Below, in pieces: positions 7,545-62,864 of a DNA stretch of 64,000 bases. Position 1 is the stretch's first letter, and each line of letters opens with the position of its first letter. The notes under the pieces were generated by a model, which had not been told where the DNA came from, searched no databases, and was given only the letters and a program-made list of their open reading frames with translations. The translations under genes and the position numbers were made by a program. The stretch is from Pseudomonas silvicola (GTDB taxonomy: Bacteria > Pseudomonadota > Gammaproteobacteria > Pseudomonadales > Pseudomonadaceae): assembly GCF_026651855.1 (NCBI RefSeq), contig NZ_CP093280.1, forward strand, positions 6,222,501 through 6,286,500. The letters run 5' to 3'.

Positions 7545-7925
7545 TTAGGCTCTGTACGAACAGAGCTGTCGTGAACACCGCATGGAGCACGCCACCGAGA
7601 CCATAGGGCCGTAGCTTTTCGCGAGAGTGTCGCAGCGCACCACGATCCGGCGGTTCTCTTTAAGCCCTCCAAACATTCGCTCGATGACATAGCGTCGTCG
7701 GTACTTGGACCGATCAAACAGTCTTGGTAAGCCAGACTTGGGGGTGCGCTTCATCGGGCGCAGCGCGATAACGGGTTGCATTCGATATGGGTCGCGGTAG
7801 CGGCGTAGCGCTTCGGCGTCTTAACCCTTGGCGGCAAGCAACCATCTACAGCGCTTACGCGGCCGGCCATGCTGGCTCGATGGAAAGCTAACCTCGCCCA
7901 ACAGCGATTGAGCGTAGCTAATGCG
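7545..7925 (-). pseudogene. IS5-family transposase, C-terminal third (decayed)
   Basis: Reading the minus strand from about 7925: RISYAQSLLGEV, GRPRKRCRWLLAAKG, then an in-frame stop, DAEALRRYRDPYRMQPV, and the catalytic-end sequence FDRSKYRRRYVIERMFGGLK ending in SYRA. The final codons lie inside the terminal inverted repeat (GGCTCTGTACGAA at 7548-7560), as is usual for the IS427-type group. The conserved DDE glutamate is in VIERMFG. The N-terminal two-thirds are absent here; matching N-terminal sequence is found in the opposite orientation at 16621-17160. Confidence 0.85.
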
Positions 7926-7930
7926 CCAAA

Positions 7931-8800
7931 CTATGAAAGCCCAGACCATTTTTTTAAATACGATCGAGCATCATGGCAAAGGGCCCCGTAACGGCTGTCG
8001 AGGAGTAGGAACCTATGAACTTTCGGCAGTACCTCTACACTCAATGCGGGGTATAGATGATGCACTAGGTGGTATCCGTCATTTCGAGGCAGAAGAACCC
8101 ACGACAACACTTTGTTACGGACCATGAAATTTCGGGTCTTAATATATTTATCAGAATTTCCAACCAATCCCCCGTGATCAATTACATCCATCAAATATTT
8201 GTGAACTTGAAACGCATAGAAATAAGGCAGAATGATGAATGCAATGAAATACCATAAATAGCAAAACGCTACCCCCACCAGCAGTCCCAGAAAAACTATC
8301 CGCACACAGCGCGCCCATACTGGAGACTTCCGATCAAACCAGCATATAGAAATTGGTAGTCGACCCCAATCAAGCGTTAAAGCCCTTTTCAGGTGTTCGA
8401 AAAAAACCTCTCGGCTAGGTTCACGACTCAATCCGTACTTTCCCAGCCCTCGAAGATCAAGATCCCTTTCTAAGTCACCTAGATATTTATGATGCGCAAA
8501 ATGCTCCTTCTGAATAGTTTTAAAACTCGACAGCTCCAAAATCGCAAACAACTCACCAAAAGTCCTATTGAGATCACGAGAATCACAAAAAGAGTAGTGA
8601 TAACACTCGTGAGATATATTATTTATAGCCCTGAAGCGAGCACCTAAAAAAAATAGCATTAAAGGATATAGAGACCAACTTACAGGGTAAGCCAGACACA
8701 AACAATAGCAAGCAACGGACGCTACGACCAGCACAAATACATTGATACAGCCTATCATCGCAGCTTGCACCGTGCTTTTTCTATACGTATACCCTTCCAT
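7931..8800 (-). CDS. Fatty acid desaturase-like membrane di-iron oxidase, last gene of the biosynthetic island operon
   Basis: About 289 residues with four or five hydrophobic segments and the three histidine boxes of membrane di-iron desaturases/hydroxylases: HECYHY, HFAHH and HLVHHLYP, plus DVIDHGG. The ATG at 8800 follows AGGAGG; an alternative ATG at 8815 overlaps the previous stop (TAATG), a pattern used elsewhere in this operon. In this context it more likely oxidises a biosynthetic intermediate than membrane lipid; the phaseolotoxin cluster also has a desaturase-like gene. AT-rich composition. Its stop codon is only a few bases from the IS5 remnant. Confidence 0.85.
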   Translation of the reverse strand: MEGYTYRKSTVQAAMIGCINVFVLVVASVACYCLCLAYPVSWSLYPLMLFFLGARFRAINNISHECYHYSFCDSRDLNRTFGELFAILELSSFKTIQKEHFAHHKYLGDLERDLDLRGLGKYGLSREPSREVFFEHLKRALTLDWGRLPISICWFDRKSPVWARCVRIVFLGLLVGVAFCYLWYFIAFIILPYFYAFQVHKYLMDVIDHGGLVGNSDKYIKTRNFMVRNKVLSWVLLPRNDGYHLVHHLYPALSVEVLPKVHRFLLLDSRYGALCHDARSYLKKWSGLS

Positions 8801-8814
8801 TTTACCTCCTCTCA

Positions 8815-9570
8815 TTATCCACCAAGACCATCAAATCGCCGAGCCAACGATCGAAACAACAGGACCGATGCACAGGCATGAACAAAAACAATGAATAAAA
8901 ACTCAAAAAAAAGTCCAACATCACCCTTGTCAAGCACGTTTGCGGAAACAGAAGCGCTAACCAAAAGAGGAAACGCATGTATCAGCAGCTTAGTGATAAT
9001 CGTGGAAAAAAACGGAACAGGCACTATCGCAAAAGCACTCAACTCGGAGTGAACATAATCAACTGGCATTTCCCGCTGCGTTAAAAACGTAAGAGAATAG
9101 AACATAATGAGAAATGACAGATTAGCAACAACACCAACAACCAATGAAAGCACCCATAGAACCAAGCCTGCCGCAGGATGAACCAATAATGCAAGATCCG
9201 CATAGACACAGACAATAATGCATACGCAAACTAGTACATAAAGATAGGAGGGCTTGCACTGTCGAAGAAGCACCAGCCACCACATCGGTACAGGCTTAAT
9301 AAGGAACGGATCCCCTAGACCACGACTAAGGTGCTGAAAAAAACTCTCAATGGAGGCAGAAAAAAAATTGACCACCAAAGAAACGACAACATAAGAAAGC
9401 AGCATTATAAACAGCCAACTCTTCGAGACGGCACCTCCCAGAAAATTAGAAACAACGTCAAAAAAAATTAGCTGGCAGCTATAGAAGACACAAAGAGCCG
9501 CAACATGCCCAGTTAAATTAGTCAAATATTTCAATTCAGACTGTAAGCAATTCCATATCCATTTAAACAT
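8815..9570 (-). CDS. ABC-2 type exporter permease, second subunit
   Basis: About 251 residues with six predicted TM segments and a short N-terminal amphipathic stretch. I chose ATG 9570, which follows GGAGGG and begins two bases after the previous stop; the upstream extension to 9651 would lie within the preceding gene. Together with the adjacent permease and ATPase it should form a heteromeric exporter similar to bacterial ABC-2 (DUF990-type) transporters. The most probable cargo is the product of the upstream enzymes. AT-rich. Confidence 0.75.
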   Translation of the reverse strand: MFKWIWNCLQSELKYLTNLTGHVAALCVFYSCQLIFFDVVSNFLGGAVSKSWLFIMLLSYVVVSLVVNFFSASIESFFQHLSRGLGDPFLIKPVPMWWLVLLRQCKPSYLYVLVCVCIIVCVYADLALLVHPAAGLVLWVLSLVVGVVANLSFLIMFYSLTFLTQREMPVDYVHSELSAFAIVPVPFFSTIITKLLIHAFPLLVSASVSANVLDKGDVGLFFEFLFIVFVHACASVLLFRSLARRFDGLGG

Positions 9571-9572
9571 TA

Positions 9573-10358
9573 CTACCCTCCAGCACCACCATATTTCACC
9601 CGAATAACCTTCGCCGCAAAAAATATCCACATCAAAAGCGTGACACCCCAAAATACATACAAGCCCAACAATTCAAGCGCAAGATTTATTGAGGGCTTCA
9701 CCAAAAACTCAGCCGGACCGCCAATTGCTAATCGGAAAGGGTTATATCTCATTGCCGGCTGCAGCCAATCCGGCCAAAATGCTACCGGAAGCAAAGTGCC
9801 GCCTGCAACACTGAACATAACTACGTTCAGGCTCAACAGGGCATCAGGCTTCACAGTCCAGTAGACAAACCCTGCCATCGCATAGCCTAATAAAAAACAT
9901 AATCCCTGACTCAGCAGCAACAAGCACAAAAAGCCAACAACCCCAACCATCTCACCCTTAAACAAAACAACAACCACCGCCACCATAATAGGCGGAAAAT
10001 AATATAGCAAACTTTCCCCAACGAACAAGGCCGCACTATAAAACATATAACTTACAGGCTTCACTTGAAAGCATTCAATCAGACCATAGCTCACATGACC
10101 CGAAATACGAGCGATCAAATCGTAAGCGTTATTCAACCTATTTAAAGCGAGCGCAGCCGCGTAATACAAATAAATCTCGGACAACGCGTACCCCCCCTGA
10201 AGCTCGTTTGCTGGAAAAACTGCACGACTCCAAATCAACAACTGAATAACAAAGGGAACGCTCGTCGCTATAAAAAAATCAACTATCAACATTGACCTAT
10301 CACAATAAACGGAAAAAAAACCCGCCTTAACAAGCGATTTTGCTGCTCTGGCATTCAT
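9573..10358 (-). CDS. ABC-2 type exporter permease, first subunit
   Basis: 261 residues, six hydrophobic segments, with a cytoplasmic leader (MNARAAKSLVKAGFFSVYCD) and the WSRAVF turn common in ABC-2/DUF990 permeases. The ATG overlaps the stop of the ATPase gene by four bases (ATGA), so it is translationally coupled to it. It is likely paired with the permease at 8815-9570 to form the transmembrane pore. Confidence 0.8.
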   Translation of the reverse strand: MNARAAKSLVKAGFFSVYCDRSMLIVDFFIATSVPFVIQLLIWSRAVFPANELQGGYALSEIYLYYAAALALNRLNNAYDLIARISGHVSYGLIECFQVKPVSYMFYSAALFVGESLLYYFPPIMVAVVVVLFKGEMVGVVGFLCLLLLSQGLCFLLGYAMAGFVYWTVKPDALLSLNVVMFSVAGGTLLPVAFWPDWLQPAMRYNPFRLAIGGPAEFLVKPSINLALELLGLYVFWGVTLLMWIFFAAKVIRVKYGGAGG

Positions 10359-11380
10359 TCGCCACCTTCCTCTTCGCCATACGTCTCGCGACCGCTTCTA
10401 ATAAAGTTCAGAAAGCTATCATCCAAAGACTTCTCAACACTACTCCAGTAATAAATTTTCTTATGCAATAAATAGCCTTCAACAAAAGATCTAGCTCGAT
10501 AACTCACTTCCAGCCGAACAACATCCTTTTCGACTCTTACATAGTTGCATCCATCAATACGGCTTAGGAGCTCCTGCAACTCTTGCAATCTGTTGTGCAC
10601 TAACACATCCCTGTTGCGCAGACCAATACAATAGACTGACATACCGCTACATCTACTAAACTCGGACAATGGACCGTCATACCCAACCCGCCCCCTATCT
10701 AACACTACCAACCTACGACAACATGCTTGTATATCTAAGGAGTCATGACTCGTCAAGATAAGCGTCGTTCCCTGTTCAGCGCTTCGATAATTTAAATAAT
10801 CTCTTATTTGAAACTTTGAAGCCACATCTAACCCAAGCGTTGGCTCATCTAACAATAAAATCTCCGGAGAATGCATTAGCGCAAGTGCAATTTCGCACTT
10901 GACCCGCTCACCCAGACTCAGATTCCTCACAGGTCTATCGAGAACAGCTTGCAGACTTAAAGCACAGAAGAGTTCGCTAATATTTTTTTCGTAAACACAT
11001 TTATTTACGGCATAAACATCGCGATAAGTATCAAAGCTTACTCTGGCGGGCAGGTCCCACCACAACGAACTTTTATGCCCGAAAACTACGCCAATTCTTC
11101 TCAGATAAGCGGGCTTCCGACGGGCTGGCTCAAACCCTAAAACCGAAACCCTTCCAGACGTAGGGCGGTGAATGCCAGAGATCATCTTTAACAAAGTGGA
11201 TTTACCTGCACCATTCGCTCCGACCAACCCGACAGTCTCGCCTTTCTCGACCACAAAGGAAGCGTCATCGATCGCAACAAACCTATCATCCGGTCTATTG
11301 AAAAAGCCAAATGAAAAACTGCTCCTCCGCACATAGACTTTGGACACATTGGAAACCACAATTGATTTATCCGTCATCAT
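10355..11380 (-). CDS. ABC exporter ATP-binding protein (ABC-2 type)
   Basis: 341 residues. Walker A GANGAGKST, signature LSLGERVK, Walker B ILLLDEPT and the switch His in ILTSHD are all intact, so it should be an active ATPase. The long region after residue 230 (GRVGYDG onwards) is typical of DrrA-like and ABC-2 exporters. I chose ATG 11380, sharing one base with the stop of the ATP-grasp gene (TAATG); a second ATG follows directly at 11377. It energises export by the two permeases downstream and may double as self-protection. Confidence 0.88.
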   Translation of the reverse strand: MMTDKSIVVSNVSKVYVRRSSFSFGFFNRPDDRFVAIDDASFVVEKGETVGLVGANGAGKSTLLKMISGIHRPTSGRVSVLGFEPARRKPAYLRRIGVVFGHKSSLWWDLPARVSFDTYRDVYAVNKCVYEKNISELFCALSLQAVLDRPVRNLSLGERVKCEIALALMHSPEILLLDEPTLGLDVASKFQIRDYLNYRSAEQGTTLILTSHDSLDIQACCRRLVVLDRGRVGYDGPLSEFSRCSGMSVYCIGLRNRDVLVHNRLQELQELLSRIDGCNYVRVEKDVVRLEVSYRARSFVEGYLLHKKIYYWSSVEKSLDDSFLNFIRSGRETYGEEEGGE

Positions 11381-12609
11381 TAAAAGACCTTGTAGCACTG
11401 TCGCTCACACAAGTTTTCGATCTCGGCAAGCACAGCGGAGCGCTCACCTTTGATAATAATGGACGCTAAGCTTCGCTCGTGACTATAAAATGAGCGACAT
11501 AACTTCGTACCCAGTGGAACGCTTTTTCGGTGCAGCACTTGTAGGTTAGCCGGCGCGTCCAAGCAGATAGCTAAAAGTCGATCACTGCTATTATCTGGCA
11601 GGAATGGGATGGAGATCCAACCATGTGCAGTGTGCTGCGAAGGATTGGAAAATGTTTGCTTTACCTCTCTGCCGATCTGAGATTGGACGTGTGCATGAAT
11701 AATATCTACACCATACTCCAGCTTGATCGACCTACAAATCTCGCCGCCGCCAGGTCGAGCCGCAACCTCCAAAACCGTCAAGTCCTGCTCACTCAACCGT
11801 ATAAACGCTTCAATGTGAAATGCTCCATCGGGGAAATCCAAAGCACTAAAAATCTGCCGTAAGTGAACCATAACGAAACCGAACTGCCGGCGGTCTTGTG
11901 AGCAAGAGCCGAAGGGTGTCCCAAATAAATACCCCAATTGGCTGTTGACATATTCACCTACACACCAAAAAGCAGGTTCCTTACCGATGCACACCCCGTC
12001 TATATGGTACAAAGTTCCCTCAACAAAGCTCTCAGCATGGTATTCTGTTTCAGACATATCGTTGAATTCGTCATAAACAAATGACTCTGGACCCAAGTGG
12101 AGCGCTTTAAAATCTTGAAATGAATCTACTCTAATGACCCCTACTGCTCCAGCTAGTGCGCGTGGTTTGATGATTAGAGGGAAGCTCAACTTGCTAGCAA
12201 CTTCTGAATACTCAAAGACTATAGGAGTCTTGACACCAGCGGCAGACAGCTTCCGTTTCATTACAACCTTATCGCGAAAAGTTCGTGCTTGCGACTGGCC
12301 CATACCACGTACATCTAAAGCCTCCCTAAAATAAGCAGCTGGCAACACACTAAACTCATCCATAGCAACAACATAGTCAAAGCTACACCCATTCAAAAAC
12401 CTTTCGACAATCCCAACAATTTCCTTTTTATTGGAAAAATCGCGCACAATCAGGACATCGTCAAGACCGGCATATTCAAGTACTGCGTCATTTAGATCTT
12501 CAATTATAAAACGCACTGCTTTACAACCACTCAAGCTCCGTGAAACGTTGAGTTTGGTAGGCATCCGCAAATCCGACGTGACGATGAGTACTGATGAATT
12601 AATCTTCAC
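11380..12609 (-). CDS. ATP-grasp ligase (carboxylate-amine ligase type)
   Basis: 409 residues. The N-terminal third is a Rossmann-like preATP-grasp domain; the core has FPLIIKPRALAGAVGVIRV (ATP-binding lysine), ESFVEGTLYHIDGV, and the metal-binding end GAFHIEAFIR...LEVAARPGGG. Such enzymes activate a carboxylate as acyl phosphate and join it to an amine. A GTG start at 12609 lies five bases after the previous stop, with GAGG upstream. In this operon it probably makes an amide or peptide bond to the aminopropyl/guanidino building block. The phaseolotoxin cluster also has ATP-grasp-type ligases; the substrate here is unknown. Confidence 0.85.
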   Translation of the reverse strand: MKINSSVLIVTSDLRMPTKLNVSRSLSGCKAVRFIIEDLNDAVLEYAGLDDVLIVRDFSNKKEIVGIVERFLNGCSFDYVVAMDEFSVLPAAYFREALDVRGMGQSQARTFRDKVVMKRKLSAAGVKTPIVFEYSEVASKLSFPLIIKPRALAGAVGVIRVDSFQDFKALHLGPESFVYDEFNDMSETEYHAESFVEGTLYHIDGVCIGKEPAFWCVGEYVNSQLGYLFGTPFGSCSQDRRQFGFVMVHLRQIFSALDFPDGAFHIEAFIRLSEQDLTVLEVAARPGGGEICRSIKLEYGVDIIHAHVQSQIGREVKQTFSNPSQHTAHGWISIPFLPDNSSDRLLAICLDAPANLQVLHRKSVPLGTKLCRSFYSHERSLASIIIKGERSAVLAEIENLCERQCYKVF

Positions 12610-12614
12610 TATTT

Positions 12615-13982
12615 TTAGACCTCACAAATGAACGTCCTGCGTTTATAGCTAGCCGATTTGGGAATCGATGGCATAGTAATATAATCAAAACTCAACACAT
12701 GGCCAAACAGGCTCACCATGATCACCTCAAACTTGTCGAAAAAACCCTGGGGAATAGTTTGAATCGGCACAAAAAGCACTTTCACCGAAGACAAGCTTGA
12801 CTGAACGACTCTAAACTCTTTTAAAAATAATGGCTCGATACAAAAACACTGCTCGACTACATCCAGAAGCACTGCACTTCTTATCGTCCTTCCGTCTTGC
12901 GCAATAAAATTCTGATCAGCCCTGCCATGCAAACTATTAAGCCGCCTATAGTAAGATCCGCAAGCGCATTTTTCGTTAGAATAACAAAACTCCGCCAAGT
13001 CGCCCTGATCATAACGAATGATGGGCATTGCTGTATTCCACAAATCGGTACCTACCACTCTGCCCCTATCATCGCTGCCGACTATCTCGACATAAACATC
13101 ATCCTCACTTACGTGGTATTCATGAAAGGGACATTCGAATGCAATAATATTTAACTCTTCACTTGAGTACTCATCCAAAACGCTTACACCCAATTCTTTT
13201 TCAAGCTCCATTCGTCCACGTGAACTAGTGAATTCCGAGTTCGTCGAAATTAGTTTCACCCCAGCATCCCGAAGGACGTCTCCACATGATCCGACAATAT
13301 CAAGATATGATCCAATGCATGAAATCAATTTAGGGCGCAGCAACTTAATATGCGCGGCGAGATCCTCGGAATTGCACTCAGGCTTTATTGACAACACGGG
13401 ATGATGCCCGCAAAAAGACGAGTACCACAATGGTACAAAGTTAATATTATAAATCCACTCGTCGGGTCTTAAAGATTCCCCTAGCTGCACCTCAAACATC
13501 CGAAGCCTGAATAACGTATCCAGGTCTGTACGCCCTTCACTAAAGACCATCTGTACTTGTTTCCCGGACGACCCAGATGTGCTCATCCATCGGAGCTTAG
13601 ATAAATCATGCTTGGACGAAACGATTCTACGAGGAAACCCCTCAATCAAATCGTCTTTTGTGATTAAGGGAAGGCATTCAAAATCTTTGATGTCCCTTAT
13701 CGCCCCGAGCTCATACCCCGCTGATGAATATAGCTCTCGATAAAATAAGCAATTTTCGAACGCCCAATCCACAACAAACTGAAGCCTACCCAGTTGAAAC
13801 TCTTCAATATTTTTCCGTTCAGCAGTATAATTGCTTGATAGCGAATTCCGTGCCAGAGTCCATTTTTTCAGCATACCTCTCTGTTTAGCTAAAGTTTCAA
13901 TCTTATGAAGTGGAGTAAGGCGCATCGCAGCAGCAATCGCCGGCCCGGCCACTACCGCAGTGCGGGTGTCAAAGATACTCAT
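12615..13982 (-). CDS. PaaK-like adenylate-forming enzyme (acyl-AMP/CoA ligase)
   Basis: 455 residues. The phosphate-binding loop MSTSGSSGKQVQM, the motif DEYSSEELNIIAFEC, the ribose-binding Asp region MPIIRYDQGDLAEF and a cysteine pair CACG followed by LHGRADQNFI match the phenylacetate-CoA ligase/coenzyme F390 synthetase-like branch. It would activate a carboxylic acid as adenylate and perhaps pass it on as thioester or amide. The ATG at 13982 shares one base with the amidinotransferase stop (TAATG); the longer frame back to 14084 lies inside that gene and is unlikely. The acid substrate is not evident. Confidence 0.83.
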   Translation of the reverse strand: MSIFDTRTAVVAGPAIAAAMRLTPLHKIETLAKQRGMLKKWTLARNSLSSNYTAERKNIEEFQLGRLQFVVDWAFENCLFYRELYSSAGYELGAIRDIKDFECLPLITKDDLIEGFPRRIVSSKHDLSKLRWMSTSGSSGKQVQMVFSEGRTDLDTLFRLRMFEVQLGESLRPDEWIYNINFVPLWYSSFCGHHPVLSIKPECNSEDLAAHIKLLRPKLISCIGSYLDIVGSCGDVLRDAGVKLISTNSEFTSSRGRMELEKELGVSVLDEYSSEELNIIAFECPFHEYHVSEDDVYVEIVGSDDRGRVVGTDLWNTAMPIIRYDQGDLAEFCYSNEKCACGSYYRRLNSLHGRADQNFIAQDGRTIRSAVLLDVVEQCFCIEPLFLKEFRVVQSSLSSVKVLFVPIQTIPQGFFDKFEVIMVSLFGHVLSFDYITMPSIPKSASYKRRTFICEV

Positions 13983-15094
13983 TATGCATCCGCTCGATAA
14001 CTGGCTAGACGGCCAGTTCGCCTGATGTCCAACGTAGCGCAGTGAAACGACCCCCCAAATGACTGAAAGTTTTGAAAGTCGCATGGAACCACCTCAAAAC
14101 CCCACTTCCTGAACGCTGCAATTAACACATGTTCTTGGCGCTCTACGATAACCGTGCGCTCATCCAAAGATAGCACATTCATATGAATCCATTTACTAGT
14201 CATATAAAGCGGGTGGTTATCCGGCATTTGACTTGGCGGCGCAACCAAAACTTCCCAGTCGCGAAAAAAATCCGGAATTTTGGACACCCATGCGGGGTTT
14301 ACCAATACTTTATCAGGCGCCAACGGCAGGATAGTCGTGTCAATGTGCATAGGCGCGTTATCATCAAAGGAATACACATGAACATTGAACCGGCTGCCCA
14401 GCTCCCGCCTGAGCCAATCAACGCCCAGTTGATTGGTAACATGACTTCTCTGTCCGATAATATCTCTACCGACCTTAATAAAATCTGCCGCATCGAAAAG
14501 TGGCTCATCATTTCCGATCACCGACTCAAAAGCATTTTTATTGAGTACTTCATCAATCCACATACTATCTTTCAGCATCGGTTTCGGTGCCGAGACTACA
14601 TGTGCACCCTGTCGAAAGTAGTCGATCAGAATACTTCGATAAGGAAAAGTTTCGAAATACCGAGACCGCCATGCCATAGGCGTCTCTATAATTTTATTGC
14701 CAATCGCCAGCATCCCATCTCTTGGCATTGCACTATAGTATCCGCCATTGCTGTTGAAAAACGGGGTAGCGAAAGCCGCAAAGTGGTCGTGCGCATCGGG
14801 CCTGCGTACTTTCACTCCCAATTTGGAGAGCAGGTCGGCCAAGCCATCCACCTCAGATCTTGCTCTTTGAACATGCGCCTCTTCGAACCGGGAACCAGCT
14901 ATACTTTTCAAGTAACTTTGATGCCGCTTAGGAATTACCGCCTCCAAACTGCGATCCCAATCCGGCATTCTGATATCATCGATAACTCCCACTATCACCT
15001 CCTCCAAAGGGTCCCACTCGTTGAAAGTGGACACTGGTGAGAGCCCGGCAACCTGCTTTACGGTTTCTGCCACCTGGCATCGAGAAATAGACAT
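13982..15094 (-). CDS. L-arginine:amine amidinotransferase (AGAT/AmtA-like)
   Basis: 370 residues of the arginine:glycine amidinotransferase fold. The catalytic residues appear intact: FDAADFIKVGRD, QRSHVTN, the His of PMHIDTTILPL and the nucleophilic Cys of GSFHCATLDIRR. The family moves the amidino group of arginine onto a primary amine, giving ornithine and a guanidino compound; AmtA does this with lysine in phaseolotoxin synthesis. The start lies three bases after the stop of the aminopropyltransferase gene. The acceptor here may be the amine made by that enzyme, as inferred from gene order. Confidence 0.9.
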   Translation of the reverse strand: MSISRCQVAETVKQVAGLSPVSTFNEWDPLEEVIVGVIDDIRMPDWDRSLEAVIPKRHQSYLKSIAGSRFEEAHVQRARSEVDGLADLLSKLGVKVRRPDAHDHFAAFATPFFNSNGGYYSAMPRDGMLAIGNKIIETPMAWRSRYFETFPYRSILIDYFRQGAHVVSAPKPMLKDSMWIDEVLNKNAFESVIGNDEPLFDAADFIKVGRDIIGQRSHVTNQLGVDWLRRELGSRFNVHVYSFDDNAPMHIDTTILPLAPDKVLVNPAWVSKIPDFFRDWEVLVAPPSQMPDNHPLYMTSKWIHMNVLSLDERTVIVERQEHVLIAAFRKWGFEVVPCDFQNFQSFGGSFHCATLDIRRTGRLASYRADA

Positions 15095-15097
15095 GCG

Positions 15098-15958
15098 TCA
15101 GAATCCTTTTCTAATAGAAATCGGCGGAATAACTGCAGACTCAATTGTCAATGCGTCTACATACTCAGGAATGTAAGTCAGTTCTTTTAATCGCTGAACC
15201 ATTTCTGAAATAGACAAAACTGACTTATCCTTGTGCCCAATCAACCATACCCAATCCTGCTCCCTTAATTCAAAGTAGGTTACTTTCGCAAATGATTGCT
15301 CCATTGCAGCTTTCACTTTTTTTAAGGCGCTGCTCCTCCATATTGCTGGATTGCCCCCCTGAGTGATAAAAACGCCTTCCTGGACCAATACCTCACATAC
15401 CTTCCGATAAAAACTAGCTGAGTACAAACCAGCATTTTTAGAAGAATAATCGGGAACATCCATCACAATCAAATCGAATCTTGTATTAGACTGAATGCAT
15501 CGATCAAGAAACTCGTCACCATCACAAAAAATTAAGGTCACCCCCCCTTCACCCCTTTTGTATCTTTCAACCTCATCTACTGAATACCCATATGGGAGTA
15601 GCTGGCTACAGGCGACTAGGCATTCTTCATCAAGATCGACGTGCACTATCTTTTCAATACCAGCCTCCTTTAAAACCTGGGAAGCAACCCCTTCAGAAGA
15701 ACCTATTACGAGAGCAGATTTAGGCAGGCAAGGCATGGAAATCAGCGCAGGAACTACTTGACCTTCGTGATAGGCCTTCTGACTTAGCTCACTACTTTGC
15801 CGCTCGCCATCACAGAATAACGCCACCCCATGAGCAGTTTCAGCTATCTGTACAAACTGGTATTTAGTGCGGCGCGACAAAATCATTCGATCAACTTTCC
15901 AGCGCCTCTCTAGCCCTTCCGAAATCGGCTCAAAAATATAGGTCGTCCCACTAGCCAT
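15098..15958 (-). CDS. Spermidine synthase-like aminopropyltransferase
   Basis: 286 residues with an N-terminal beta-strand domain (VALFCDGERQSSELSQKAYHE, the counterpart of the LDG...Q..E.DE..YHE motif) and a Rossmann methyltransferase-like core. The glycine loop reads VIGSSEGV instead of the common GGGDGG, and the following acid is intact (HVDLDEE). The catalytic-Asp segment reads MDVPDY rather than the usual D-S-T-D-P. These changes suggest an altered acceptor. The ATG at 15958 has GGAG upstream; a GTG at 15973 is an alternative. It pairs with the AdoMet decarboxylase upstream, which would supply the aminopropyl donor. Confidence 0.85.
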   Translation of the reverse strand: MASGTTYIFEPISEGLERRWKVDRMILSRRTKYQFVQIAETAHGVALFCDGERQSSELSQKAYHEGQVVPALISMPCLPKSALVIGSSEGVASQVLKEAGIEKIVHVDLDEECLVACSQLLPYGYSVDEVERYKRGEGGVTLIFCDGDEFLDRCIQSNTRFDLIVMDVPDYSSKNAGLYSASFYRKVCEVLVQEGVFITQGGNPAIWRSSALKKVKAAMEQSFAKVTYFELREQDWVWLIGHKDKSVLSISEMVQRLKELTYIPEYVDALTIESAVIPPISIRKGF

Positions 15959-16023
15959 AACCAAATACTCCACACAAATTCATCCAAGCTTCAGCAAACA
16001 TCCTTTTATTAAGCAAGATTTAT

Positions 16024-16407
16024 TTACCGACCTCTTTCGAGCACCTTCACATTTTTTGGCTCTGCACTCAGCACAGTAGCTAGGTGCTTTAAAGCTATTA
16101 GCGGCTGGCATGTTCCGCACGTAAATATGTCCAAAAACAAACATCCACTTTCGGGGTACGTATGTATCGCGGCGTGGGACTCCTCTAATAGCAGCACTAG
16201 AGTCATACCCTCTGGGTCAAACTTTTTTCCAGAAACGCCACATACGGTGGCTCCACACTTGATCACTGAATCGTGAAGGGCAGCTTGCAGCCGTTCCATG
16301 TCGTTAAGCAACTGACGCTCTACATTGACCAATTCGGCAAGCAGATGTTTGCCTTCGAATTTATGCCCAACCGCATTTGCTGCATAACCATCTGCATCAT
16401 CGAGCAT
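16024..16407 (-). CDS. speD: S-adenosylmethionine decarboxylase proenzyme (prokaryotic SpeD type), first gene of the island operon
   Basis: 127 residues. The self-cleavage site is clear in LLLEESHAAIHTYPESG, where the serine becomes the pyruvoyl cofactor, and DIFTCG provides the catalytic cysteine. This is the short bacterial form (about 120-140 residues). It makes decarboxylated AdoMet, the aminopropyl donor for the next gene. The ATG at 16407 has AGGAG five bases upstream; a GTG two codons earlier is less likely. The gene leads an operon of nine and is AT-rich like the rest. Confidence 0.92.
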   Translation of the reverse strand: MLDDADGYAANAVGHKFEGKHLLAELVNVERQLLNDMERLQAALHDSVIKCGATVCGVSGKKFDPEGMTLVLLLEESHAAIHTYPESGCLFLDIFTCGTCQPLIALKHLATVLSAEPKNVKVLERGR

Positions 16408-16490
16408 GCGCACTCCTATTGAATGTGATTTTCACCCTCGTCGTGAGCGGCGACGTCTGGGAAAATGTTAAAGAAACGCGTTAAATTCTG

Positions 16491-16620: not shown

Positions 16621-17160
16621 GGTTCTGTATAAATCCCCCCCACGCTCATCCGATGCCCTTCGAGAGCCCGGATGGTGTAGAATCTGCATTCATCAAAGGA
16701 ACGAAATTCTGTGGTGGCAAAGCGTTACGAAATAAGGGATTAGGCTTAGGATGTGATCGCTCATCTCTTCATCGAAACCCATGGTCCGGAGCGGCTCCGC
16801 TTGACGACCGACAGACACTCGATCGCTTTCGATGCGCTACCAAACGGCCGCGTGGAGGTGCATGCCGGAACGCTTCAGCTCCTGGTCATCGGTTTATCAG
16901 CGGTTTTGGGTCTGGCGAAATCAGCTCTCGTTCGACTAGTTGGTTGAACGCCTGCATCCGAGACTGAATGAATAGGGACTGGTTGATTCGCGCACCTGGA
17001 TGATCGCCCCATGCTTTCCGTGCAATCCGAGCCTAATCAGGCGTCAGGAAAAAGGGACAAGACGAGCCTACTGCTCACGCTTTAGACCATCGCCTTGGCC
17101 GTCTGACCACCGAGATTCATACACTCTGCGACGCAAATGGCACCCCGCTATGCAGTGCCT
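16621..17160 (+). pseudogene. IS5-family transposase, left end and N-terminal two-thirds (decayed)
   Basis: The left inverted repeat GGTTCTGTATAAA begins at 16621 and resembles GGCTCTGTACGAA at 7548. The decayed frame starts near 16709 (VAKRYEIRD, two stops), continues DVIAHLFIETHGPERLRLTTDR, later ERLHPRLNE, a stop, and after frameshifts GQDEPTAHALDHRLGRLTTEIHTLCDANGTPL (positions about 17060-17160 given here in part). These are the helix and first catalytic-Asp regions of IS427-type transposases. The C-terminal third is missing. Sequence between about 17160 and the fimbrial gene at 17220 is unassigned. Confidence 0.75.
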
Positions 17161-58048: not shown

Positions 58049-58480
58049 TTAAATACCAGAACAGCCACCCCGAGACCCTGAACTTTCTATTGTTATTTCC
58101 AAGCCACTCTCGCCTTCTGTAACCAACCACACGGAGCCCGACGAAGAAACAAAAGCTATCGTCTTACCTCGCTGTTGAACATTGACAAAAGGATCTGAGT
58201 CCAACGACATAAGCGCCCATTTCAAAGCACCTCCCACCCATTTGCTAAAATAACCACATGAACCATGTGCCGCCGCCTCCCCCCCCGCATACACTGCGCC
58301 ACCAATTGATAATGCGAAGGATTCAAATATATCGGTGGTATCGTTAGGATCGACGCACAACCCGTTATCCAGAACAAGTTTTCTATCGATCAAATGATAA
58401 CCAAAAACGCCCATCCCAGTAATTGCTATACAGTCTGCGAAAAAAAACTCCCCTTTTCGCATCAGGTTAACCACATCCAA
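58049..58480 (-). CDS. Putative immunity protein for the full-length RHS effector
   Basis: About 143 residues from a TTG at 58480 with AGGAG eight bases upstream, overlapping the RHS stop by 12 bases; ATG 58462 and an upstream ATG 58516 are alternatives. Sequence: MDVVNLMRKGEFFFADC, FGYHLIDRKLVLDNG, C-terminal ESSGSRGGCSGI. No recognised domain. Its place directly after the toxin tip and AT-rich composition fit a cognate immunity role. Confidence 0.62.
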   Translation of the reverse strand: MDVVNLMRKGEFFFADCIAITGMGVFGYHLIDRKLVLDNGLCVDPNDTTDIFESFALSIGGAVYAGGEAAAHGSCGYFSKWVGGALKWALMSLDSDPFVNVQQRGKTIAFVSSSGSVWLVTEGESGLEITIESSGSRGGCSGI

Positions 58481-61400
58481 TTCTACCACTCCTATTTTTT
58501 GCAATTCTGGCGGCACCATCGATTTTGCCAATTGCCGGCCTTTCGATGGTACCTTGGGAGCCAAGCCCGTTACGCCTCAAACGTTCGTCAAAAGCGTGAC
58601 CCCAGGTTTTTCCATTTGGGGAGTTAGGATATTGCTCACCTTCCGAAACAAATACGACCGGCACACCCTTTAGATCCAGAGACAAAGCAGCATCCAATCT
58701 TCGATTATCAAAGCTTATCAGACGACCATCTCGATTAATGACGTTAAGCGGAGGGCCAATCCAGCCTTTTTCCCGCATTACGCTAGCGTAGTCGTTGGCA
58801 CTCACCCATGACTGACTAAAATGCAGGTTTTTTGGGTCTACGACGATTGCCGAAAGGCCGAGTGGATCAATCCAGCTGGTCGCATTCGACCCATATTGAT
58901 AAAAATTGATCCCGCCGTTCAACCCAATCGGATCCGGCGAAACAAACCTTCCCACATCCGGATCATAAAACCGAAACGTGTTGTAGTGCAGCCCCGTCTC
59001 CCGGTCCAGGTACTGCCCCTGAAACCGCAGGTTCTGCTCTTCAATGTAGTACGGCTCGCGCACCTCCTCGACCGTATTGCCCCACACCTGATACTTCGCC
59101 CGCCACACGGTATGACCGTCCGCTTCGGTCAACTGCTCGGGCAGCCCGTTGAGGTCATTGTGGTAATAACGAATCCTCGCCTCAGTCCCCGTGCCGTCCA
59201 CACGCGCTAGCGGGTCGTAGCTGCCTTCGCTGGAGTAGAGGTAGAGGCTGGTGTGGCCATGCCGATGCTCCTGCAACAGCCGCAACCCATCCCAATCAAA
59301 CCGCGTCTCGCCCAGCGGAAAGCCCCTGCCGTCATGCTCGCTCTTGCCAATCCGCCGCCCAAGCGGGTCGTACGCCATGCGCAGCACCGTCTCGCGATGA
59401 CCATCCTGGGTGCGGATTTCCCTGATGCGGTGCTCGGCGTCATAGCTGAAGCGCTGCACCACATGGCTACCCTTTCGCTTCTCGATCAGCCGCCCGAAAC
59501 CGTCGTAGCGGTAGCGTTTGTCCTGGTAGGTCAGCAGTTTGTTGTGCACCACCAGCCCAGCGCCGGCCGCAGGGCCATCGAGCAGGTTGGCGGCGGCGTC
59601 GTAGGCGAAGGTTTCGGTACGGGCGCCTGACTGGGCCGCCATGATCCGGCCGGTGGCGTCGTAGTGCAGCAGGTCCTGGCGGCGCTCATCCTGTTGCTGG
59701 TCGAAGCGCCCAATCAGGTTGTCGCTGGGGTCGTACTCGTAGCGCTTTTGCCCCGGTGCCGGCAGCACGGCTGGCTGGGTGCTGAAACGGCGCATGCGGC
59801 TGCGCAGGCGGCCGCTGCGGTCGTAGTCGCTGCGGGTGTTGAGCAGGCCTTGGGTACGCAGTACTTCGCGGTGCAAGCGGTCGCGCTCGAAGTCGCTGAT
59901 CACGCGGCCGTCGAGGTTGAGTTGGTGCAGGTGGCCGCTGCCGTAGTACAGACGGTTCAGCCAGCGGCCGTCCGGCAATTGGGTCTGGATCAGGTTGCCG
60001 AGTTCGTCGTAACGGTGCTGCAAGGTGCCAGCGGCACTGGTGTCTTGCAGCAATTGGCCGAGGGCATCGTAGGCGAAGCTCAAGGCCTGTTCGCTACCGT
60101 CCCAGCCAGTGAAACCAATCTCGGTGAGCTGGCCGACAGGATCGTAGGTATAGGCAGTACGGCCATCGTCGGTCAGCTTGGCTCGCAACTGGCCGATGGC
60201 GTCTCGCTCCAGCCAATGCAATATCGGCGCGCCATCCTCTACCACAGCCAATCCGGTGCCATGGGGCGCCGGGCGGTATTGCACGGCAACCACGCTGTTC
60301 ATCGCATCGTAACCATAGCGACGGGCGCTGCCATCCAGGTCCTGCTGTTCGACCAGGCGATCGCCAGCGTCCCAGGTAAACCGGTAACTCTCGCCGTTTT
60401 CGTTGGTCAGCGCCTGCAACCTCCCATAGGGGTCGTAGCTGAACTGCACCTGGCGGTTCATGGGGTCGAGGCGTTGGCGCACTTGCCCGCGGCGGTCGCG
60501 CTGGTAACGGGTGGTGTGCCCGGCGGGGTCGGTGTAGGCCAGCAGTTGCCCGCTGGCATCGCGCAAGAATTGTTCGCTGCGCCCGTCCGGCAGTTCGCTG
60601 CGGGTCAGGCGGCCCAGGGCATCATGGTGGTACAGGGAGCTTTCGCCCAAGGCGTCGGTCACCGCTTCAAGGTGCCCGCGCTTGTCGTAGGAAAACGCCG
60701 TTGGGTACCCAGAGCAATCCACATGCTGGATGACCTGCCCGGCATCATTCCAGCGCAGTTTCTTCGACTTGCCGGTGGCATCGATGATCTCCACCACTTG
60801 CCCGCGGCGGTCATGCCGGTAGCGGGTGACGTGGCCCAGCGGGTCGATTTCCTCGATCAGGTTGCCGCGTGGGTCATAGCGGTAGCGCCAACTGTTGCCG
60901 GCCGCATCGGTTTCAGCCAGGGGCAATGACCAGATCTCCAGCCATGCCGTGCTCTGGGTCTGGCCCAGCGCATCGGTGGACGCCACGAGGTTGCCGCTGT
61001 CGTCGTAGGCGAAGCGCCAGGTTCCACCTTTGGGGTCGACGGCGCCCAGCAACTGGCGCTCGTCGTTCCAGTCGAAATGCCAGGTCTGGCCCAGGTTGTC
61101 AGTGCTGCGGATGATCTGGAACTGAGCGTTCCACTGGCGCGTGCTGCTGCGGCCCAAGCCGTCGGTGATGCGCGTCAGGCCGAGGTCAAGGTCGTAGTCG
61201 AACTGGTACTGCTCGCCATCGTCGGTCCAGCTGCGTACTACCCGCCAATCGCCATCGGCGAACGGCGCCCATTCGTAGAAGCTGCGCAGGCCCGCGGGCA
61301 GTTGGTGCTCGACCATGCGGCGCCCGGTGTCGTAGGCGAAATGGCGAACTTGGCGTTTTTCAGCATCGATGACACCCGCCAGATCGCCCACATGATCGTA

Positions 61401-62864
61401 GCGATAATCCGCCAAACGCTCGCGGCGCTGGTCTGGATAGACCCGATCAATAGCCGCCACACGACGCGGCCAATGCGCGTCGTAGAGCAGTTCGGCCTGC
61501 ACCACCTCAAGGTCATCGTGGATACGCGCCAGCCGGCCAAGGTCGTCGTAGCTCAGGTACAGGCGGTTGTCGTTGCGATCGCCCAGTTGCGATAACCGCA
61601 GCAAGGAAGAGCTCACAGGGTCAAATAACCGGTACAGGCCGTCCACGCTTTCGATCAGCAGTTGGCCATTGGCATGACGCCGTACGCTCAGCCCTTCCCC
61701 TGCGCTGAACACCGCAGTGCCCAAGGGAATCGAGCCCATCTCGATCCGCCGCCCCTGCTCGTCGGTGTAGACCAGTTGATCACCACCGTCGGGGTGCGCC
61801 AACACGTCGACCTGTACCTCGAAAGCCACGCTCCAGCCTGCGCCAAACAGACCCTCACGACGCACGTCGGCACTGCTGTAGAAGCGTCGCCATTCCAGCG
61901 GCATGATCCCTGGCAAGACAAAATCGGTGTCGTCATCCCCATTGAGCACCTTGGCACCGGTGGCCGCATGCACTGGGTGCGGCGAACCGATGACCGCGTT
62001 GGCGGCGGCGCCGATGGCTTGATCGACCATGAAACCACGTACGAACCCCAACGCCATGCATGGCAGGCGGCTGAAGAACTTGCCCTTGCCGCCGCGCAGC
62101 GCCATGAGCACGCTGATGGCCAACCCCACACCCGGGGTCTTGCCGCTGCGAATGTCGCGCACCACCACCGGGCCACCGCCGATGCGCACGTTGGAAGAGA
62201 TCAGCCCCGAGCTCACCACGGTCGCTTCGCAGGTGCTGCGGTCGCCGCTGCGCACCGCCGGCTGGCCGTTGATGCTGACCTTGCTGGAACCCTCGGCAAG
62301 AAACTGCGGCGCACCGGGCGGGTGCTTCATGCAGGTGATAACGTCCTCCTGGCACGGGACGGCCAGGGGTGAGGCCATGGCCACCGTCGGTTGCCAAAGC
62401 TGCGAGAAGAACCCCTTGGCCATGTCCAGGAAGCTGCCTTCCTCGGGCTCTGGCGGGGGAATATCGGTGCCGGCAGCTTCGGCCGGGCTGCCCAGCTTGC
62501 CGGCGGCGCGTGCAGCAGGCAGGCCGTTGATGAAGGTGTTGCCTGAACCGGTGAGGATGTTGGCCTGCACCACCGGCGGGAATACGGCGTTGGCAATACC
62601 CTCGCAGACAGTCGTCAGCCCGTGGTCCAGGCCCGTGGCGCTCATGCCCATGCCGACGGCCACCCCCATCACCGCGCCGAATACGCAGGCGCCCAGCCCT
62701 CCGGTGGCGACGGTGATCCCGGTAGCAGCCACCACTGCCGCCGTGGCCAAGGCGCCGATGGCCGCATAGGCGGCCACTTCCAGCACCCCGCCGAGAATGT
62801 CGGCCATCATCGACGAGTGCATCAGGGCGTCGCCCTGGCGGGCGGCCCAAAATCCGTCAGCCAT
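58467..62864 (-). CDS. RHS-repeat effector with N-terminal TM pair and PAAR domain, C-terminal ParB-like toxin tip
   Basis: 1465 residues. Residues about 25-75 are two hydrophobic helices, typical of T6SS effectors that use EagR chaperones. A PAAR-like region follows (ANILTGSGNTFINGLPA; SINGQPAVRSGDRSTC). From about 310 to 1325 run RHS/YD repeats ([34 protein letters not shown]), ending at the core mark SWIDPLGL. The remaining 128 residues are the tip: HFSQSWVSANDYASVM and GRLISFDNRRLDAAL resemble a ParB/sulfiredoxin-like nuclease fold. Start ATG 62864. No other T6SS gene is in view. Confidence 0.88.
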   Translation of the reverse strand: MADGFWAARQGDALMHSSMMADILGGVLEVAAYAAIGALATAAVVAATGITVATGGLGACVFGAVMGVAVGMGMSATGLDHGLTTVCEGIANAVFPPVVQANILTGSGNTFINGLPAARAAGKLGSPAEAAGTDIPPPEPEEGSFLDMAKGFFSQLWQPTVAMASPLAVPCQEDVITCMKHPPGAPQFLAEGSSKVSINGQPAVRSGDRSTCEATVVSSGLISSNVRIGGGPVVVRDIRSGKTPGVGLAISVLMALRGGKGKFFSRLPCMALGFVRGFMVDQAIGAAANAVIGSPHPVHAATGAKVLNGDDDTDFVLPGIMPLEWRRFYSSADVRREGLFGAGWSVAFEVQVDVLAHPDGGDQLVYTDEQGRRIEMGSIPLGTAVFSAGEGLSVRRHANGQLLIESVDGLYRLFDPVSSSLLRLSQLGDRNDNRLYLSYDDLGRLARIHDDLEVVQAELLYDAHWPRRVAAIDRVYPDQRRERLADYRYDHVGDLAGVIDAEKRQVRHFAYDTGRRMVEHQLPAGLRSFYEWAPFADGDWRVVRSWTDDGEQYQFDYDLDLGLTRITDGLGRSSTRQWNAQFQIIRSTDNLGQTWHFDWNDERQLLGAVDPKGGTWRFAYDDSGNLVASTDALGQTQSTAWLEIWSLPLAETDAAGNSWRYRYDPRGNLIEEIDPLGHVTRYRHDRRGQVVEIIDATGKSKKLRWNDAGQVIQHVDCSGYPTAFSYDKRGHLEAVTDALGESSLYHHDALGRLTRSELPDGRSEQFLRDASGQLLAYTDPAGHTTRYQRDRRGQVRQRLDPMNRQVQFSYDPYGRLQALTNENGESYRFTWDAGDRLVEQQDLDGSARRYGYDAMNSVVAVQYRPAPHGTGLAVVEDGAPILHWLERDAIGQLRAKLTDDGRTAYTYDPVGQLTEIGFTGWDGSEQALSFAYDALGQLLQDTSAAGTLQHRYDELGNLIQTQLPDGRWLNRLYYGSGHLHQLNLDGRVISDFERDRLHREVLRTQGLLNTRSDYDRSGRLRSRMRRFSTQPAVLPAPGQKRYEYDPSDNLIGRFDQQQDERRQDLLHYDATGRIMAAQSGARTETFAYDAAANLLDGPAAGAGLVVHNKLLTYQDKRYRYDGFGRLIEKRKGSHVVQRFSYDAEHRIREIRTQDGHRETVLRMAYDPLGRRIGKSEHDGRGFPLGETRFDWDGLRLLQEHRHGHTSLYLYSSEGSYDPLARVDGTGTEARIRYYHNDLNGLPEQLTEADGHTVWRAKYQVWGNTVEEVREPYYIEEQNLRFQGQYLDRETGLHYNTFRFYDPDVGRFVSPDPIGLNGGINFYQYGSNATSWIDPLGLSAIVVDPKNLHFSQSWVSANDYASVMREKGWIGPPLNVINRDGRLISFDNRRLDAALSLDLKGVPVVFVSEGEQYPNSPNGKTWGHAFDERLRRNGLGSQGTIERPAIGKIDGAARIAKNRSGRIGCG
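58920..59232 (-). repeat. 313-bp direct repeat within the full-length RHS core
   Basis: Main copy of the segment displaced at 57711-58023. The main copy keeps GAA at the place where the displaced copy has TAA. Confidence 0.9.

What the first reader, a model, noticed from the sequence alone, without database searches (positions are those of the whole stretch)
7931..16407. Undescribed biosynthetic operon combining decarboxylated-AdoMet aminopropyl transfer, amidino transfer, two carboxylate-activating ligases, a desaturase and its own exporter
Nine minus-strand genes (SpeD-type decarboxylase, spermidine synthase-like enzyme, AGAT-like amidinotransferase, PaaK-like adenylating enzyme, ATP-grasp ligase, ABC ATPase, two permeases, desaturase-like oxidase) are joined by overlaps or gaps of a few bases (apart from 65 bp after speD), so they must work together. 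The AT-rich composition differs sharply from the flanks. Known families suggest the route: dcAdoMet donates an aminopropyl group to an amine or amino acid, arginine donates an amidino group, and the resulting guanidino-amine is joined to an activated acid and exported. Parts recall phaseolotoxin (amidinotransferase, ATP-grasp, desaturase-like gene) and edeine (guanylated spermidine), but I know of no cluster with this set. A toxin or antimetabolite is the most likely product; that is inference.
Basis: partly seen in the sequence, partly recalled or inferred. Interest (0 to 1): 0.93.

Follow-up and report, generated by a model that had tools for sequence, protein, structure and literature searches.

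The report
Phevamine-like polyamine operon with exporter
A Pseudomonas chromosome carries an inserted nine-gene cluster that probably makes and exports a guanidine-bearing spermidine derivative, a cousin of phevamine A (a molecule with which some plant pathogens quieten plant immunity), but with its own polyamine supply, an extra activating enzyme, an oxygenase and an exporter.

Summary
In detail: nine intact, tightly packed minus-strand genes (7931-16413; GC 42-48% against 63-69% beside it) sit between insertion-sequence-like remnants, in a site that is empty in two of five congeners examined. The amidinotransferase is sister to HsvA (57-60% identity; support 100/99); the ATP-grasp ligase groups with HsvB plus HsvC (92/91). 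The PaaK-like enzyme and three-part ABC exporter recur together in two other Pseudomonas genomes. The operon looks like a hybrid of these two modules plus an AdoMet decarboxylase (the genome's only one found), an aminopropyltransferase-like protein and a GntB-like membrane oxygenase. Best reading: make spermidine, amidinate it, acylate it, perhaps hydroxylate it, export it. Product, target and role are unknown; toxicity is inference. The nine-gene set was not found elsewhere in the samples searched (397 congeners; class and phylum samples; plasmids; a motif-limited scan of 84,980 species genomes). It is not an hsv operon: one ATP-grasp ligase instead of two, no hrp-box match in the window, no HrcV above cut-off in the genome. 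New variant of a known kind.

The parts
16024..16413 (-). speD-like: S-adenosylmethionine decarboxylase proenzyme, short (B. subtilis) type; GTG 16413 or ATG 16407 start
   Evidence: TIGR03330 over cut-off; ESH, IHTYPE and FTCG motifs retained; only PF02675 match in the genome
15098..15973 (-). speE-like: probable aminopropyltransferase
   Evidence: PF01564 60.2 bits; aligns with solved spermidine synthases, DxxD at 172-175 and GxxEG-type site at 91 kept; below speE equivalog cut-offs
13982..15094 (-). HsvA-type amidinotransferase
   Evidence: PDB 5wpi HsvA E 1.7e-147; sister to the HsvA clade 100/99; His250 and Cys352 invariant in all rows
12615..13982 (-). PaaK-like adenylating enzyme (ORF opens at 14084; likelier start 13982)
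   Evidence: Phenylacetate-CoA ligases are best PDB matches, E 8e-16; TSGSSG, DEYSS, MP..R..QGD and C-terminal SYKR motifs shared with relatives
11380..12609 (-). ATP-grasp carboxylate-amine ligase, HsvB/HsvC-type
   Evidence: ATP-grasp_4; best plasmid hits are Pantoea hsv ligases; groups with HsvB and HsvC 92/91; L-amino acid ligase 4wd3 is best PDB match
10355..11380 (-). ABC exporter ATPase (DrrA-like; ORF opens at 11398)
   Evidence: ABC_tran; 52-54% to exporter ATPases of G289 and G128
9573..10358 (-). ABC exporter permease 1
   Evidence: 49-51% to permeases of G289 and G128; no Pfam match
8815..9570 (-). ABC exporter permease 2 (ORF opens at 9651)
   Evidence: ABC2_membrane_6; 34-38% to permeases of G289 and G128
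7931..8815 (-). membrane di-iron oxygenase of the fatty acid desaturase fold family, GntB-like
   Evidence: FA_desaturase 114 bits; GntB E 2.8e-28, below cut-off; three His boxes at 69, 105 and 249
7545..7923 (.). left insertion-sequence-like remnant
   Evidence: repeated elsewhere in the genome: 85%, 84% (part) and 68% (part) copies; transposase-like ORF by eye, no Pfam match
16678..17147 (.). right repeated remnant
   Evidence: 70% copy at G000:C1:2304682-2305148, 35 bp from a copy of the left remnant

Best explanation
A horizontally acquired pathway for an exported, acylated amidino-polyamine, cousin of the phevamine A pathway. Proposed route (steps inferred unless marked): SpeD-like makes decarboxylated AdoMet; the SpeE-like enzyme moves its aminopropyl group to putrescine (or agmatine); the HsvA-type enzyme moves the amidino group of arginine to a polyamine amine, so that both orders can give an amidinospermidine; the single HsvB/C-type ATP-grasp ligase joins an amino acid to it; the PaaK-like enzyme adenylates a second acid and adds it, taking the place of the second Hsv ligase; the GntB-like membrane oxygenase hydroxylates the guanidino part or the acyl part; the three-part ABC exporter sends the product out and may protect the producer. 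Shown here: gene content and order, the insertion, the phylogenetic placements, retained motifs. Not shown: any activity, the product, its target.
For: Amidinotransferase: best PDB match HsvA 494 bits, next 312; sister to HsvA clade 100/99. HsvA is called a polyamine amidinotransferase in a cited title (reference list). ATP-grasp: nearest to hsv ligases. Phevamine A is described as a modified spermidine that needs spermidine (passages), which fits speD/speE in the operon; this SpeD is the only one found in the genome and of a type not seen in 47 congeners. PaaK-like plus exporter recur as a unit in G289 and G128. Tight gene packing, one insertion.
Against: No hsv locus held carries speD or speE relatives, and no other locus held does, so the link of aminopropyl supply to this pathway rests on this one operon. 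The ligase tree has moderate support (92/91, no starred set holds the window protein) and identity is only 28-31%. The SpeE-like protein is far below the speE equivalog cut-offs, so its acceptor is open. One paper guessed lysine, not a polyamine, as acceptor of the P. syringae HsvA homologue (passage). MboE, annotated as amidinotransferase, proved a deiminase (passage). The oxygenase's substrate is unsupported.
Confidence: 0.55

Rival explanations
1. Guanidino-acid logic (as in spergualin, recalled): the amidino group goes to an amino acid or amino-acyl acid, this guanidino acid is activated by the PaaK-like enzyme and hydroxylated by the GntB-like enzyme, and is joined to spermidine made by SpeD/SpeE. 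The product is a guanidino-acyl polyamine.
For: GntB, the nearest curated family of the oxygenase, acts on free L-arginine (NCBIfam name; passage). An older paper suggested lysine as acceptor for the HsvA homologue (passage). It gives the PaaK-like enzyme and the oxygenase a joint role.
Against: The nearest amidinotransferase relatives are HsvA, named a polyamine amidinotransferase.
Confidence: 0.2
2. The amidinotransferase-fold protein is a deiminase acting on a peptide, as MboE does in mangotoxin, and the compound is a short peptide with a polyamine tail.
For: MboE was annotated as amidinotransferase and found to be an arginine deiminase beside two ATP-grasp ligases in Pseudomonas (passage, PMC13185094).
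Against: Close kinship with HsvA rather than a deiminase; MboE itself was not compared by sequence here.
Confidence: 0.07
3. The operon mainly supplies, modifies and exports polyamines for the cell's own physiology or stress tolerance; no specialised compound is made.
For: The genome has no other SpeD, so the operon could be its spermidine source.
Against: 24 of 47 congeners live without any SpeD match; two acid-activating ligases and an HsvA-type enzyme have no role in plain polyamine supply.
Confidence: 0.06
4. Same chemistry as the best explanation, but the role is antibacterial or antifungal competition, not action on a plant or other host.
For: No HrcV over cut-off in the genome and no hrp-box match in the window, unlike hsv operons reported as HrpL-regulated (passages). 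In G289, G128 and G373 the PaaK-like gene lies with an ABC-F-type gene; ABC-F proteins often protect ribosomes from antibiotics (recalled).
Against: No ABC-F gene in this operon; no activity data of any kind.
Confidence: 0.12

Closest known systems
hsvABC, the phevamine A operon (P. syringae, Erwinia amylovora, Pantoea stewartii)
   Same: Amidinotransferase sister to HsvA; ATP-grasp ligase groups with HsvB plus HsvC; product probably a modified spermidine.
   Different: One ATP-grasp ligase instead of two; own speD/speE, PaaK-like enzyme, oxygenase and exporter; no hrp-box match in the window and no HrcV over cut-off in the genome.
PaaK-like plus ABC-F plus three-part ABC exporter clusters of Pseudomonas G289 and G128 (unnamed, product unknown)
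   Same: PaaK-like (32-34%), ATPase (52-54%), both permeases (34-52%) in the same order.
   Different: They carry an ABC-F gene, an aminotransferase and a 2-hydroxyacid dehydrogenase-like gene (by eye) and no amidinotransferase, SpeD or SpeE relative.
Mangotoxin (mbo) cluster
   Same: ATP-grasp amino acid ligases, an amidinotransferase-fold enzyme and a di-iron oxygenase in one small Pseudomonas cluster (passages).
   Different: Its oxidase is of the haem-oxygenase-like fold and its MboE is a deiminase on a peptide; no polyamine genes mentioned in the passages.
Guanitoxin pathway (GntB)
   Same: Oxygenase's nearest curated family (E 2.8e-28).
   Different: 99 bits against a cut-off of 380; the rest of the pathway is unlike.
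Phaseolotoxin and edeine clusters
   Same: Amidinotransferase and ATP-grasp ligase (phaseolotoxin) and guanidino-spermidine (edeine), both recalled.
   Different: Not compared by sequence here.

Membership tests
hsvABC / phevamine A operon | HsvA-type polyamine amidinotransferase | tested here: met
   57-60% identity to five HsvA copies, sister 100/99, PDB HsvA best match. It lies beside, not inside, the HsvA clade.
hsvABC / phevamine A operon | two adjacent ATP-grasp ligases (HsvB and HsvC) | tested here: not met
   one ATP-grasp gene only; 28-31% to HsvB/HsvC and basal to both
hsvABC / phevamine A operon | HrpL control and link to a type III secretion system | tested here: not met
   no match of GGAAC-N15-17-CCAC in the window (pattern recalled; about 2 expected by chance); HrcV model: two matches, 592 and 591 bits, cut-off 692
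hsvABC / phevamine A operon | makes phevamine A | not testable with these tools
   needs metabolite analysis
AdoMet decarboxylase, TIGR03330 | score over the curated cut-off | tested here: met
   102.3 bits, cut-off 75.65
Spermidine synthase, TIGR00417 (speE) | score over the equivalog cut-off | tested here: not met
   84.8 bits, cut-off 249.55; PF01564 is met
Guanitoxin GntB, NF041365 | score over the equivalog cut-off | tested here: not met
   99.2 bits, cut-off 380
Phenylacetate-CoA ligase PaaK, TIGR02155 | score over the equivalog cut-off | tested here: not met
   67.6 bits, cut-off 646.3
Phaseolotoxin cluster | AmtA and the rest of the pht gene set | not tested
   no pht sequence was fetched or compared

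The most novel reading that the evidence does not exclude
A new class of exported natural product: an acylated, perhaps hydroxylated amidino-spermidine, made by an operon that supplies its own aminopropyl groups and was assembled from an hsv-type core that branched off before the HsvB/HsvC duplication and an adenylation-export module of a different Pseudomonas pathway. It would be a polyamine mimic made and exported by a bacterium without a detected HrcV-type injection system.
Probability: 0.4. Interest if true: 0.75.

Novelty: new variant of a known kind. Interest (0 to 1): 0.6.

Why it matters
Phevamine A is known from plant-infecting bacteria, where its genes belong to the HrpL/type III regulon. 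A cousin pathway in a Pseudomonas without a detected HrcV, with built-in polyamine supply and an exporter, would show that polyamine-mimic compounds are wider and more modular than thought, and would explain how such a compound leaves the cell. It also gives a single small operon whose product can be sought directly, with labelled arginine and methionine.

Tried and rejected
Considered and set aside. (1) The induced-systemic-susceptibility locus with speE2 (PMC7298707; outline and passages seen): a 2,544-bp speE2 in an 11-gene locus that includes a six-gene operon known from stress and virulence studies; different make-up. (2) Archangium loci L002 and L005: amidinotransferase beside a desaturase-type gene, but beside very long NRPS-like ORFs (by eye). 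(3) Desaturase-type hits on Staphylococcus plasmids: beside a LysE-type transporter; uninformative. (4) viral-contig scan with the PaaK-like protein: no relative. (5) Phage records: amidinotransferase hits of 21-29% only in the 15 records listed. (6) Megablast of the operon against 72,556 plasmid records: no match; permease 1 by tblastn: no match. (7) Promoter and terminator scans: no more than in shuffles (10 against 14.4; 8 against 10.5). (8) Structure prediction of the oxygenase never ran, so no fold search was made.

Limits. The species-wide scan used exact 8-residue motifs of one protein; 40 stretches matched, 9 encoded relatives; a diverged operon could be missed. Of the 45 plasmid records with an amidinotransferase hit the surroundings of four were read. 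Of the 15 matches in 14 other genus genomes, wider surroundings were compared for six; the other nine, three of five class hits and six of seven phylum hits were compared only with about 1.5 kb of flank or less; no other operon gene was seen in any of these. The empty-site check used five congeners chosen from 17 with the flanking gene. The tree left out L045, the window's own copy; the 30 rows include it. The tree used ligases from three of six hsv loci held and 12 others chosen by me from hits; a fetched unannotated Vibrio stretch (L084) was not used.
Full report
Where it is. The window is G000:C1:6222501-6286500 of an 8.65-Mb genome in three contigs. The genus is Pseudomonas: congener G367 has a contig of 394,735 bases with the amidinotransferase hit, the same length as contig NZ_OLKL01000010.1 of Pseudomonas sp. 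Kh13, found with a hit at the same identity.

Observation. Nine minus-strand ORFs run from 16413 down to 7931: SpeD, SpeE-like, amidinotransferase, PaaK-like, ATP-grasp, ABC ATPase, two permeases, desaturase-like. Plausible starts give gaps of 65, 3, -1, 5, -1, -4, 2 and -1 bp. GC per gene is 0.42-0.49 and GC3 0.40-0.50, against 0.63-0.69 per kilobase at 3-8 and 17-26 kb. None of the nine is broken.

It is an insertion. Of five congeners examined around the flanking spore-coat-U gene, G029 and G016 have the window's whole flank (M14 peptidase, cytochrome b561, catalase-like, ECF sigma, anti-sigma, then spore-coat-U and usher) with the anti-sigma and spore-coat-U matches ending 48 bp apart. In G045 and G024 the sigma block is missing and the M14 peptidase lies next to spore-coat-U. 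In G002 another 8.4 kb of ordinary GC (0.649) lies there, with transporter- and oxidoreductase-like ORFs (by eye). The site is thus variable. In the window 9.7 kb lies between the two genes. Its left edge (7545-7923) has partial copies of 85%, 84% and 68% elsewhere in the genome; its right edge (16678-17147) has a 70% copy at 2.3047 Mb, 35 bp from a left-edge copy. These look like insertion-sequence remnants; the left ORF has no Pfam match.

The hsv core. HsvA (PDB 5wpi) is by far the best PDB match of the amidinotransferase (494 bits; next, SxtG, 312). It is 57-60% identical to copies in four Pseudomonas genomes and Pantoea stewartii, each of which sits with two ATP-grasp genes. I take these to be hsvABC: the published entries are 366, 418 and 414 (read as lengths in aa; passage, PMC8303149), the G383 genes are 366, 417 and 414 aa, and the operon is reported in P. 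stewartii DC283 linked to the type III system (passage, PMC3879358), as L026 shows. In a 29-row tree the window protein is sister to the HsvA clade at 100/99. His250 and Cys352 are among 38 columns invariant in all 30 aligned rows; that they are catalytic is recalled. The title of Shanker et al. 2017 calls HsvA a polyamine amidinotransferase; I saw it only in a reference list, the paper not being held. Against this, PMC3879358 supposed that the P. syringae homologue uses lysine (passage).

The ligase. Of 90 plasmid records that match the ATP-grasp protein, the three best are Pantoea hsv loci (E 3e-39 to 4e-38); the next E-values are 5e-24 and 3e-24. In a 19-row tree it groups with HsvB and HsvC together at 92/91, with HsvC nested within HsvB. 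It therefore looks like a single ligase from before that duplication, but support is moderate and the rows were my choice. Its best PDB match is an L-amino acid ligase (4wd3, E 1.1e-14).

Aminopropyl supply. The SpeD is of the short type, with ESH, IHTYPE and FTCG motifs. It is the only PF02675 match in its genome. Of 47 congeners sampled, 23 have a SpeD match, all at 55-57 bits in open frames of 277-352 aa, against 99 bits and 135 aa here; 24 have none. PF01564 finds this SpeE-like protein (60.8 bits) and two others at about the cut-off (23.6 and 22.6 bits) in the genome. The SpeE-like protein keeps the DxxD and GxxEG-type sites in alignment with solved enzymes, but is far below the speE equivalog cut-off. 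Phevamine A is described as a modified form of spermidine that needs spermidine for its synthesis (passages). An operon with its own spermidine supply, in a genome with no other SpeD, is what one would expect of a related product.

The adenylation-export module. Of 398 genus genomes (own included), four others have a relative of the PaaK-like protein at E 1e-30 or better. In two of these four, G289 and G128, an ABC-F-type gene and then relatives of the operon's ATPase (52-54%), permease 1 (49-51%) and permease 2 (34-38%) follow in the same order. In G373 the PaaK-like gene lies with ATP-grasp, desaturase-type and arginine-deiminase-type genes and an ABC-F-type gene. In G085 it lies by Rieske-like and MATE-like ORFs (by eye). 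Bartonella kosoyi plasmid pTLV-1 has an ATP-grasp/PaaK pair. The TSGSSG, DEYSS, MP..R..QGD/HGD and C-terminal S-x-KR elements are shared among these six proteins (QGD varies to HGD), so adenylation is likely. Whether CoA is used is open.

The oxygenase. The last gene has three histidine boxes and its nearest curated family is GntB (E 2.8e-28, below cut-off), a transmembrane enzyme of the guanitoxin pathway (passage). Desaturase-type genes also lie by the amidinotransferase in Archangium (27-30% to this one) and, by histidine boxes with almost no sequence similarity, in G1061; of 22 other amidinotransferase loci scanned, no more had one. Hydroxylation of a guanidino compound is the best guess, and a weak one.

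Two modules in one place. Among 26 fetched loci (tblastn E 1e-5), the amidinotransferase and the ATP-grasp relative occur together only in the six hsv loci; the PaaK-like protein, ATPase and both permeases only in L099 and L103; no locus shows SpeD or SpeE relatives. In 35 more loci, many of them short, no combination appears at all. More distant ATP-grasp genes do lie beside the Streptomyces amidinotransferase of L028 (blastp E 4e-9) and in G373 (E 4e-14). The whole set was not found in 397 congeners, in 369 class and 398 phylum genomes, own included and partly overlapping, in plasmids, or in the motif-limited scan of 84,980 species genomes; the limits are told under Tried and rejected.

Literature. 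Ten full-text searches were made. Going by the titles and abstract starts listed and the passages read, none describes speD/speE together with an HsvA-type amidinotransferase and ligases. The lists were capped, the library holds open-licence papers only, and the phevamine and HsvA papers are not in it.

Verdict. Observation confirmed. New variant of a known kind; product, target and role unknown.

Noticed in passing
58049-62864 (minus strand): A 1465-aa ORF with RHS-type repeats (by eye) whose 3' end, and the small ORF after it, fall in a GC-poor stretch (0.46-0.48 at 57-59 kb): looks like a polymorphic RHS protein with an exchanged tip and a partner gene.
   Followed up: no
L102 8383-19141 (Pseudomonas G373): A cluster with ATP-grasp, aminotransferase, PaaK-like, 2-hydroxyacid dehydrogenase, FAD oxidase, desaturase-type, arginine-deiminase-type and ABC-F genes: same functional classes as the operon, different proteins; product unknown to me.
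   Followed up: partly
L099 8532-18858 and L103 10503-18422 (Pseudomonas G128, G289): PaaK-like, ABC-F-type and three-part ABC exporter genes with an aminotransferase and a dehydrogenase-like gene: an apparently unnamed conserved cluster.
   Followed up: partly
L016-L022 and L025 (seven Pseudomonas genomes, plus a second copy in G383): A second amidinotransferase family at about 40% identity, apart from HsvA in the tree; surroundings of one of eight compared beyond 1.5 kb (L035). Function not worked out.
   Followed up: no
L027 4324-9455 (Pantoea sp. JZ29 plasmid): Near the hsv genes lies another small cluster: tRNA-ligase-related, TauD dioxygenase, ATP-grasp, MFS exporter and racemase genes.
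   Followed up: no
G000 C1:1284632-1286620 and C1:6815884-6817935 (L095, L096): Two FlhA/HrcV-family genes, both below the HrcV cut-off; by eye both look like flagellar FlhA, so the strain may have two flagellar systems.
   Followed up: partly
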